Below, piece by piece: positions 16,981 to 18,601 of a stretch of 64,000 bases of DNA. How positions within the stretch are numbered: position 1 is the stretch's first letter; the number at the start of each line of letters is the position of its first letter. Source of the stretch: Bacteroidota bacterium (lineage in GTDB: Bacteria > Bacteroidota > Bacteroidia > Bacteroidales > DTGW01); assembly GCA_029550865.1 (NCBI GenBank), contig JAKPGM010000047.1:42560-106559 (forward strand). The letters are read 5' to 3'. Below the pieces are notes generated by a model. It was not told the DNA's origin, did no database searches, and was given only the letters and a program-made list of their open reading frames with translations. A program made the position numbers and the translations under genes.

Positions 16981-17835
16981 TCAAGAATTTAAAATTTTTG
17001 CAATAAAATCATGTACCTGGCTGTATGCCTGGTCAAAATCAGGAATATCATTACTGTTTAATTGTGTCTGCAAGCTTTGTTTCCATGCCAGTTGATTAGC
17101 ATTGAACTTATCTTTGTTAATGAATTGGGCAATACGTTCGACCTTAATTTTCTTGTGTTGTGCTTTATTTAAAAGCAAGTCTTTTAGTGTCGTATAAGAT
17201 TGGATGTCAATATTTTTTGCAAGATACCATAAGTCATAAATATCCCTGGGACGGTTCCTTTGAATTAATGAACGTAGTTTTTCGACAATAATCTCATTGC
17301 ATGAGTATACATTTACTTGATTGGTTATCAGTATTTTATCGGAATAATTATGAATGATAGGTTTTATTGCCGTAGGTTCAAAAACCTTTTCTGAAAAAAC
17401 AATGTCAAGTTTTATTTTATCTTGCCATCGATTTACAGGTAATGGCTTTTGGTTGACTTTATGGTTGGCACCCCAAAATTTAATTACTATTTCGTATCCC
17501 TGATCGGTATCCTCAAATATCTGTTTTCTTAAGCTGAATAAATTAAATTTAATTCCGCTGATTTCATGAGCTTTCTTTATACAACTCTTAATTATACTTT
17601 CATCAATTGCAAATTTTTCATCAATCAAAGTAAAATCAAGGTCTTCGGAAAATCTATAATTTTCAAAATAACATTTTCTAAGGCAGGTTCCTCCTTTAAA
17701 AACTAATAAATCTTTAGCAAACTGAAATTCGAATAGAGCATTTAAAAAATGTCCTAAAACCCAGTCTTTATCGATGGTCGAAGTGGGTACTCCATGTTTT
17801 TCGCTTAATTTTATAATCTCACGTTGCAAAATCAT
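16981..17835 (-). CDS. AbiEii/AbiGii family nucleotidyltransferase toxin
   Basis: LVFKGGTCLRKCYFENYRFSEDLDFTLID (KGGT plus SEDLDF motifs) and RNRPRDIYDLWYL, as in AbiEii toxins; full length, no visible lesion. Confidence 0.92.
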   Translation of the reverse strand: MILQREIIKLSEKHGVPTSTIDKDWVLGHFLNALFEFQFAKDLLVFKGGTCLRKCYFENYRFSEDLDFTLIDEKFAIDESIIKSCIKKAHEISGIKFNLFSLRKQIFEDTDQGYEIVIKFWGANHKVNQKPLPVNRWQDKIKLDIVFSEKVFEPTAIKPIIHNYSDKILITNQVNVYSCNEIIVEKLRSLIQRNRPRDIYDLWYLAKNIDIQSYTTLKDLLLNKAQHKKIKVERIAQFINKDKFNANQLAWKQSLQTQLNSNDIPDFDQAYSQVHDFIAKILNS

Positions 17836-17836
17836 T

Positions 17837-18601
17837 TTATGAATTTGCTATATTCATTATTTCATCGATAGACATGTTAATTATTAATCTCCATTTACGG
17901 TCCGATTTTCCCGATTTTACACGATGCGGGTCAAACAAATTATATTTTTCGTTTCGTACTCTTTGCGCATATTCTAAAAAGAATTCCATGTTTTTCTTTT
18001 CAAGTAGCTCAGATAGAAATGCAATGCGCTTAGTTACTGCTATGTTGTCAATTGCCTTACAGTATGCAACCAATTTTCGGGCACTAAGTTCAGCTTTTGC
18101 AAAAGCCTTAATTATTTCGTTATAGCCACCTGCATGTTGCGGCAAATCAAAGCAATCGACGATGGTCTTTTCGGTATCAGTAATTTTATATACCAGGTTG
18201 CCATACCCTTCGACTTTATAACCCACCAGCTTTTCTTGTTTAACCTGTACAAACCTGTACCTAACTCCAAAGATGGTTTTGTCGGCCTTCTTTTTAGCTG
18301 TTTGAACAAAAATGATGTTGGGTAGTTGTTCAGTAAGCCCATGATAATTCATTGCTGTCCAATAAGCTATACCGCCATCTCTTGCCAAAAAATTACCTAT
18401 TGCAAACTCGTTCCGAAAATCGTATCTGCAGTATTTGCCTTTTTCAATAACTCTAAGAAAATCTGCATTAACAAGATTTCTAAGAGCTTTCTCTACTTCT
18501 TTCTCAGGCAAATCAATATTTTTTATCAATACTTCCTTTGAAAAAATATCGAGACCCGCATCAGTAATGTATTCCAGTAATTTCGATTCATATGGTTTCA
18601 T
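17837..18601 (-). CDS. AbiEi-like antitoxin (N-terminal winged-helix)
   Basis: HTH-like IKNIDLPEKEVEKALRNLVNADFLRVIEKGKYCRYDFRNEFAIGNFLA, then ITDTEKTIVDCFDLPQHAGG. ATG at 18601 preceded by AAAAGGTG; the listed start at 18610 is a GTG. One nucleotide separates its stop from the AbiEii start. Confidence 0.85.
   Translation of the reverse strand: MKPYESKLLEYITDAGLDIFSKEVLIKNIDLPEKEVEKALRNLVNADFLRVIEKGKYCRYDFRNEFAIGNFLARDGGIAYWTAMNYHGLTEQLPNIIFVQTAKKKADKTIFGVRYRFVQVKQEKLVGYKVEGYGNLVYKITDTEKTIVDCFDLPQHAGGYNEIIKAFAKAELSARKLVAYCKAIDNIAVTKRIAFLSELLEKKNMEFFLEYAQRVRNEKYNLFDPHRVKSGKSDRKWRLIINMSIDEIMNIANS

What the first reader, a model, noticed from the sequence alone, without database searches (positions are those of the whole stretch)
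16981..18601. Type IV (AbiE) toxin-antitoxin pair embedded between cas7 and cas5 of a type I-B cas operon
Seen: gene order cas6-cas8b-cas7-AbiEi-AbiEii-cas5-cas3-cas4-cas1-cas2, all on the minus strand. AbiEi and AbiEii are 1 nt apart. The AbiEii stop overlaps a possible cas5 TTG start, or lies 5 nt before the cas5 ATG at 16975. Both TA genes look intact. Established: AbiEii is a nucleotidyltransferase-fold toxin, and AbiEi is a DNA-binding antitoxin and autorepressor. Type I-B operons usually have cas7 next to cas5. CreTA modules, which are RNA-based, are known to make cas operons addictive. Inference: a protein TA here could (i) make the Cascade/Cas3/adaptation genes addictive, (ii) act as a back-up abortive-infection layer if Cascade fails, or (iii) place cas5-cas3-cas4-cas1-cas2 under AbiEi autoregulation. 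The tight packing argues against a random recent insertion.
Basis: partly seen in the sequence, partly recalled or inferred. Interest (0 to 1): 0.88.

Follow-up and report, generated by a model that had tools for sequence, protein, structure and literature searches.

The report
AbiE toxin–antitoxin inside CRISPR-Cas operons
In many Bacteroidota a growth-arresting protein toxin and its antitoxin sit inside the gene cluster of the CRISPR immune system, with their own self-repressed promoter just ahead of half of the cluster, which suggests that loss or regulation of CRISPR immunity is tied to a toxin switch.

Summary
AbiEi (18601-17837) and AbiEii (17835-16981) lie between cas7 and cas5 of a complete type I-B operon with a 49-repeat array. 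It is not a one-genome oddity: the same insertion occurs in 13 distinct loci (several GTDB families of the window's order, plus two Saprospiraceae MAGs and cultured Anaerophaga thermohalophila). Related AbiE pairs lie at cas3|cas4 or inside duplicated cas4 in four to five more loci, in other I-B variants. In an unbiased survey 12 of 17 close AbiEii relatives were in or beside cas genes (including one cas remnant); of 11 distant AbiE loci examined none was inside a cas operon. Where intact, AbiEii nearly touches cas5 (-4 to +7 nt), while cas7 is always 81-220 nt upstream of AbiEi; in 7 of 13 of these loci that gap holds a significant inverted repeat, and nearly all hold a Bacteroidota-type -7 element. 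Toxin genes decay with the antitoxin intact, and one AbiE pair outlives its cas operon. Best reading: a self-regulated type IV TA cassette repeatedly captured by, and partly co-inherited with, I-B operons, with cas5-cas3-cas4-cas1-cas2 behind its promoter. Addiction, regulation and abortive-infection roles are untested. No prior description was found in the held papers.

The parts
17837..18601 (-). AbiEi antitoxin / autorepressor (254 aa; winged-helix N-terminal domain)
   Evidence: PADLOC AbiEi 4.2e-83, Pfam AbiEi_1 2.1e-4 just under cut-off; AF2 model best matches SagAbiEi 6y8q and Rv2827c 1zel
16981..17835 (-). AbiEii nucleotidyltransferase-fold toxin (284 aa)
   Evidence: Pfam PF08843 2.1e-40, PADLOC 3.7e-82; motifs I-IV present and almost all invariant in 20 sequences; AF2 pLDDT 93, best PDB matches MenT4 6y56 and MenT3
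18609..18662 (-). Putative AbiEi operator: perfect 13-bp inverted repeat ACCTTTTATAGTA-N28-TACTATAAAAGGT
   Evidence: p 0.015 against shuffles; the only such extended repeat among 3 places matching the loose pattern in the 2.5 Mb assembly; geometry close to the S. agalactiae abiE operator, 11 bp N27
18637..18665 (-). Putative promoter of abiEi-abiEii (TTTACC-17-TATATT; TAATTTTA at 18648-18641), inside the inverted repeat
   Evidence: consensus scans only
18744..19673 (-). cas7 (upstream neighbour)
   Evidence: Pfam Cas_Cas7 5.6e-41
16205..16975 (-). cas5b (downstream neighbour, 5 nt after AbiEii)
   Evidence: TIGR02592 1.9e-30
13504..16251 (-). cas3 (HD + helicase)
12982..13494 (-). cas4
   Evidence: Pfam 8.8e-54
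11958..12962 (-). cas1
   Evidence: TIGR03641 type I-B Cas1 6.2e-142
11693..11956 (-). cas2
   Evidence: Pfam 3.4e-24
19685..21523 (-). cas8b
   Evidence: PADLOC Cas8b 3.9e-106
21541..22350 (-). cas6
   Evidence: TIGR01877 1.1e-27
8304..11482 (-). CRISPR array, 49 exact 30-nt repeats, 48 spacers of 34-38 nt; strand inferred from the ...ATTGAAAT repeat end

Best explanation
A self-contained type IV TA cassette (operator-promoter, abiEi, abiEii) has been captured at preferred joints of type I-B cas operons in Bacteroidota, several times, and is then partly co-inherited with them. Shown from sequence: position, recurrence, intactness, operator-like repeats, near-zero spacing to cas5. Inferred: AbiEi represses the internal promoter, which transcribes abiEi-abiEii-cas5-cas3-cas4-cas1-cas2, in addition to read-through from upstream of cas6. 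AbiEi also neutralises the AbiEii toxin, so a deletion that removes the cassette together with neighbouring cas genes is penalised, and conditions that relieve AbiEi repression raise toxin and Cas5/Cas3/adaptation genes together.
For: Recurrence: 13 distinct loci with AbiE at cas7|cas5, against 61 with cas7-cas5 spacing of 70 nt or less and 9 with other inserts or gaps (L122 is cut before cas5). Specificity: 12 of 17 close AbiEii in 395 genomes lie in or beside cas genes (one beside a cas5 remnant); of 11 distant AbiE loci examined none is inside a cas operon and one is 2.2 kb from a cas9-cas1 locus; Fisher p about 2e-3 to 3e-4. Architecture: AbiEii-cas5 -4 to +7 nt in the intact loci, cas7-AbiEi 81-220 nt. 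Operator: significant inverted repeat in 7 of 13 cas7|cas5 loci plus L164, with the shared core ACCTTTT...AAAAGGT (at most one mismatch) in window, L026, L031, L084, L096, L112, L164; TAnnTTTG in 11 of 20 upstream regions against 1.9 in shuffles; no terminator-like site in 13 gaps. Function: motifs I-IV kept; dN/dS 0.06-0.17 for the AbiE genes where synonymous sites are not saturated; toxin decayed with antitoxin intact in L028, L158 and L031, never the reverse. Co-inheritance: AbiEi/AbiEii distances correlate with Cas7/Cas5/Cas8 (r 0.44-0.70, p up to 0.003).
Against: No transcript, binding or toxicity data. In L044 the cas operon is gone while AbiE is intact beside a decayed cas5 start, and L028/L158 lost the toxin with cas genes kept, so addiction is leaky. 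Y1 transposases (5 loci) and a YhcG-type nuclease (1) occupy the same joint, so the joint tolerates inserts. The operator repeat is not significant in L033, L036, L112, L118, L122, L127. Correlation of distances ignores shared ancestry of the hosts. Most loci are MAG contigs.
Confidence: 0.5

Rival explanations
1. Passive hitch-hiking: cas7|cas5 and cas3|cas4 are simply joints that tolerate inserts. AbiE, like Y1 transposases and YhcG-type nucleases, lands there by recombination and persists as an independent, selfish or generally useful TA with no effect on CRISPR-Cas.
For: The same joint holds Y1 TnpA in 5 loci and DUF1016/YhcG in L116; L039 has duplicated cas4 around AbiE and L036/L127 share 96% identical Cas5 but only 68% identical Cas7, so cassettes move by recombination; AbiE survives cas loss in L044.
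Against: TnpA keeps gaps of 88-325 nt to cas5, AbiE none; the close AbiEii clade is enriched at cas loci while distant AbiE is not; co-inheritance with Cas proteins.
Confidence: 0.25
2. Back-up abortive infection: AbiE is a second defence layer that acts when CRISPR interference fails, kept next to cas genes so that both are inherited and expressed together.
For: AbiE is a proven abortive-infection TA in other bacteria (PMC3985639); the window pair is intact.
Against: Nothing in the sequence links the AbiEii trigger to Cascade failure; no CRISPR-repeat-like element or spacer match beyond chance in the AbiE region.
Confidence: 0.2
3. CreTA/CrePA-like guard: Cascade with a crRNA-like RNA represses the toxin, which is released when Cascade is lost or inhibited.
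For: CreTA modules are known in type I-B loci (PMC12737573).
Against: The best repeat-like match in the cas7-AbiEi gap scores below the shuffled mean; no spacer matches the AbiE region above shuffles; the best spacer match in the window (to the cas7 end) is within shuffled maxima; a protein antitoxin and its own operator are present.
Confidence: 0.03

Closest known systems
AbiE type IV toxin-antitoxin system (S. agalactiae AbiEi/AbiEii; M. tuberculosis MenT3/MenT4, Rv2827c)
   Same: Gene order, AbiEii motifs I-IV, folds of both proteins, and an inverted repeat around the promoter with nearly the same geometry (13 bp N28 here; 11 bp N27 there).
   Different: Lies inside a cas operon, with cas5 directly behind the toxin gene instead of a bicistronic unit of its own.
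CreTA / CrePA (CRISPR-regulated toxin-antitoxin)
   Same: A toxin module inside a cas locus that could make CRISPR-Cas addictive.
   Different: There the antitoxin is a crRNA-like RNA acting through Cascade; here it is a protein repressor, and no crRNA-like element was found.
TA modules linked to CRISPR loci in large neighbourhood surveys (Altae-Tran et al. 2023, PMC10910872)
   Same: That paper notes numerous TA modules near CRISPR loci that could safeguard cas genes.
   Different: The passages found in its main text do not name AbiE, the cas7|cas5 position or the spacing to cas5; its supplements were not readable here.

Membership tests
AbiE type IV TA system | AbiEii/DUF1814 nucleotidyltransferase with motifs I-II (hG[G/S]x15DhD), III (lysine/arginine) and IV (+DxxD) | tested here: met
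   G48-G49, x15, D65-L66-D67; K186/R193; R197-D198-I-Y-D201; all but D201 invariant in 20 sequences, D201 at least 90%
AbiE type IV TA system | Adjacent upstream AbiEi with winged-helix and C-terminal domain | tested here: met
   1 nt apart; model best matches SagAbiEi 6y8q and 1zel; lower model confidence than AbiEii (pLDDT 82)
AbiE type IV TA system | Inverted repeats in the promoter bound by AbiEi, autorepression | tested here: inconclusive
   Repeat present with matching geometry; binding not testable
AbiE type IV TA system | AbiEii is toxic and AbiEi neutralises it without binding it | not testable with these tools
   Indirect only: toxin-first decay
CreTA / CrePA | crRNA-like antitoxin RNA made from degenerate CRISPR repeats near the toxin gene | tested here: not met
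   No repeat-like or spacer match beyond shuffles in the AbiE region
Type I-B CRISPR-Cas | cas6, cas8b, cas7, cas5b, cas3, cas4, cas1, cas2 and an array | tested here: met
CRISPR-guarding TA in the functional sense | Loss of cas genes is penalised by the toxin | not testable with these tools
   Genomic cases point both ways

The most novel reading that the evidence does not exclude
A protein TA repressor has become an internal regulator of CRISPR-Cas: AbiEi controls a promoter that co-transcribes the toxin with cas5-cas3-cas4-cas1-cas2, so that interference and adaptation genes are released together with a growth-arrest toxin when AbiEi is depleted, and the operon is held in place by the same TA.
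Probability: 0.35. Interest if true: 0.85.

Novelty: new variant of a known kind. Interest (0 to 1): 0.68.

Why it matters
Known toxin guards of CRISPR-Cas use RNA antitoxins that work through Cascade. A protein TA lodged inside the cas operon in many families would be a second, independent way to stabilise or regulate CRISPR immunity, could help explain how costly type I loci persist, and gives a directly testable case. One carrier, Anaerophaga thermohalophila DSM 12881, is a cultured isolate. A 2025 review lists as open whether other TA types work together with CRISPR-Cas (PMC12737573).

Tried and rejected
CreTA-like control: repeat-like and spacer-match scans of the AbiE region and operon, nothing above shuffles. 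AbiE remnants in cas7|cas5 gaps that hold TnpA or nothing: no credible match, best E 0.008 inside the YhcG gene. A second AbiEi operator in front of cas6 or elsewhere: no other extended repeat in the window or assembly. Single-origin model: not supported; the cas7|cas5 and cas3|cas4 AbiEii are interleaved on the AbiEii tree and L112 sits in a different Cas7 clade from the rest. PDB search with AbiEi by sequence found nothing useful. Literature: eight searches, seven of them aimed at CRISPR together with TA or AbiE, found no description of AbiE inside cas operons in the held library; subscription papers and supplements could not be checked.

Full report
Observation. The window carries a complete type I-B operon on the minus strand, in the order cas6-cas8b-cas7-AbiEi-AbiEii-cas5-cas3-cas4-cas1-cas2, followed by a 49-repeat array. 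The AbiE pair is at the stated coordinates. AbiEi and AbiEii are 1 nt apart and AbiEii ends 5 nt before the cas5 ATG. The cas7 side is not tight: 142 nt lie before the AbiEi ATG.

The proteins. AbiEii matches PF08843 (2.1e-40) and a PADLOC AbiEii model (3.7e-82). In an alignment with 19 relatives the residues of motifs I-IV defined by Dy et al. 2014 (PMC3985639) are kept: G48-G49, x15, D65-L66-D67, K186/R193, R197-D198-I-Y-D201. Its AF2 model (pLDDT 93) best matches the toxins MenT4 and MenT3. AbiEi matches a PADLOC AbiEi model (4.2e-83); its model (pLDDT 82) best matches S. agalactiae AbiEi and Rv2827c.

Recurrence. Cas5 was searched in 395 genomes of the same order and 399 genomes of the phylum, and a Cas7 alignment was used to pull 80 named loci. 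After removal of duplicates, AbiE lies between cas7 and cas5 in the window, L026, L031, L032, L033, L036, L084 and L122 (Saprospiraceae MAGs), L087, L096 (Proteiniphilum MAG), L112 (Anaerophaga thermohalophila DSM 12881), L118 and L127 (L122 is cut before cas5). In 61 other loci cas7 and cas5 are 70 nt or less apart; 5 have a Y1 transposase there, 4 another insert or gap, one of them a YhcG-type nuclease.

A cas-linked AbiE lineage. An AbiEii profile searched in the 395 genomes gave 17 close relatives (above 240 bits). Twelve are in or beside cas genes: six at cas7|cas5 (the window included), L166-L168 between the cas3/effector genes and cas4, L164 behind cas3 with no cas4 on the stretch, L039 inside a duplicated cas4, and L044 beside a cas5 remnant. 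Of the other five, four lie at contig ends and one sits beside a phage-type integrase gene. Of 11 distant AbiE loci examined none is inside a cas operon; one lies 2.2 kb from a cas9-cas1 locus. Fisher tests give p of 2e-3 (that locus counted as linked) or 3e-4. A binomial estimate with an assumed 2% background is far smaller, but that background was my assumption. L164 and L166-L168 belong to other I-B effector variants (Cst/TNEAP-type and another). In the phylum-wide sample only two further close AbiEii were found, with no cas gene within 1.5 kb.

Architecture. In the intact cas7|cas5 loci AbiEii-cas5 spacing is -4 to +7 nt; in L031, whose toxin gene is broken, its distal piece still ends 4 nt before cas5. 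cas7-AbiEi spacing is 81-220 nt. The window gap contains a perfect 13-bp inverted repeat, ACCTTTTATAGTA-N28-TACTATAAAAGGT, around promoter-like sequence. Repeats with the core ACCTTTT...AAAAGGT (at most one mismatch) are also in L026, L031, L084, L096, L112 and L164; L032 and L087 have different but significant repeats; several loci have none above shuffles. The S. agalactiae abiE operator is an 11-bp repeat with N27. A TAnnTTTG element occurs in 11 of 20 upstream regions against 1.9 in shuffles, and none of the 13 gaps has a terminator-like site. These are consensus matches, not measured promoters.

Evolution. The AbiEii tree and the Cas7 tree agree in part: L033, L036, L118, L122 and L127 group in both, while L032 and L112 do not fit one origin. 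Distances between AbiEi/AbiEii and Cas proteins correlate (r 0.44-0.70). L039 (single-contig genome) has two similar cas4 copies around AbiE, the first shortened, and L036/L127 share 96% identical Cas5 but 68% identical Cas7, so cassettes seem to move by recombination. dN/dS of the AbiE genes is 0.06-0.17 where synonymous sites are not saturated; many pairs are saturated. In L028, L158 and L031 the toxin gene is broken and the antitoxin gene intact; the reverse was not seen. Three cases are too few for a test. In L044 an intact pair stands beside a decayed cas5 start with the rest of the cas operon gone from that place: the TA outlived the operon, which shows both that the TA is retained and that it did not save the operon.

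Mechanism. The sequence supports a self-regulated TA cassette with cas5-cas3-cas4-cas1-cas2 behind its promoter. That AbiEi represses this promoter, that the transcript runs into cas5, and that the pair makes the operon addictive are inferences. A CreTA-like mechanism was tested and not supported. Passive hitch-hiking remains a serious rival.

Novelty. No paper found in the held library describes AbiE inside cas operons. TA modules near CRISPR loci are known in general, so I rate this a new variant of a known kind.

Noticed in passing
L025 5807-6274, L027 3296-3757, L034 10954-11415, L095 11132-11593, L128 11036-11497: IS200-like Y1 transposase genes sit alone between cas7 and cas5 in five I-B loci, the same joint that AbiE uses.
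   Followed up: partly
L116 10934-11965: A DUF1016/YhcG PDDEXK nuclease gene sits between cas7 and cas5 in Alkaliflexus imshenetskii.
   Followed up: partly
L026 2710-3498, L172 10099-10602, L039 13680-15098, L114 14459-15187: Genes of no Pfam family (two tested), with a shared PPExxELPxIAEL-like stretch by eye, recur between cas3 and cas4 or beside AbiE; possibly an undescribed accessory family.
   Followed up: no
L028 4146-4613: The first 17 or so codons of AbiEii are fused to a tail that resembles the end of a Schlafen/RecG-like gene, with AbiEi intact next to it.
   Followed up: partly
L031 8167-8400: About 230 nt with terminal inverted repeats (AGGTCTTCGACCTA...TAGGTCGAAGACCT) lies between AbiEi and AbiEii; looks like a small mobile element.
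   Followed up: no
window 10691-10716 and 18764-18789: A spacer matches the 3' end of cas7 at 22 of 26 bases; within the range of shuffled spacers, and the seed end is not matched.
   Followed up: yes
L175 4589-13397: A distant AbiE pair lies 2.2 kb from a cas1 gene next to a 1349-aa Cas9-like gene.
   Followed up: partly
L025 9386-10288 and the other loci labelled WYL: Helix-turn-helix/WYL regulator genes stand next to cas6 in many of these I-B loci.
   Followed up: no
window 22685-23077 and 53509-53705: tmRNA gene just upstream of the cas operon and a cobalamin riboswitch further on.
   Followed up: no
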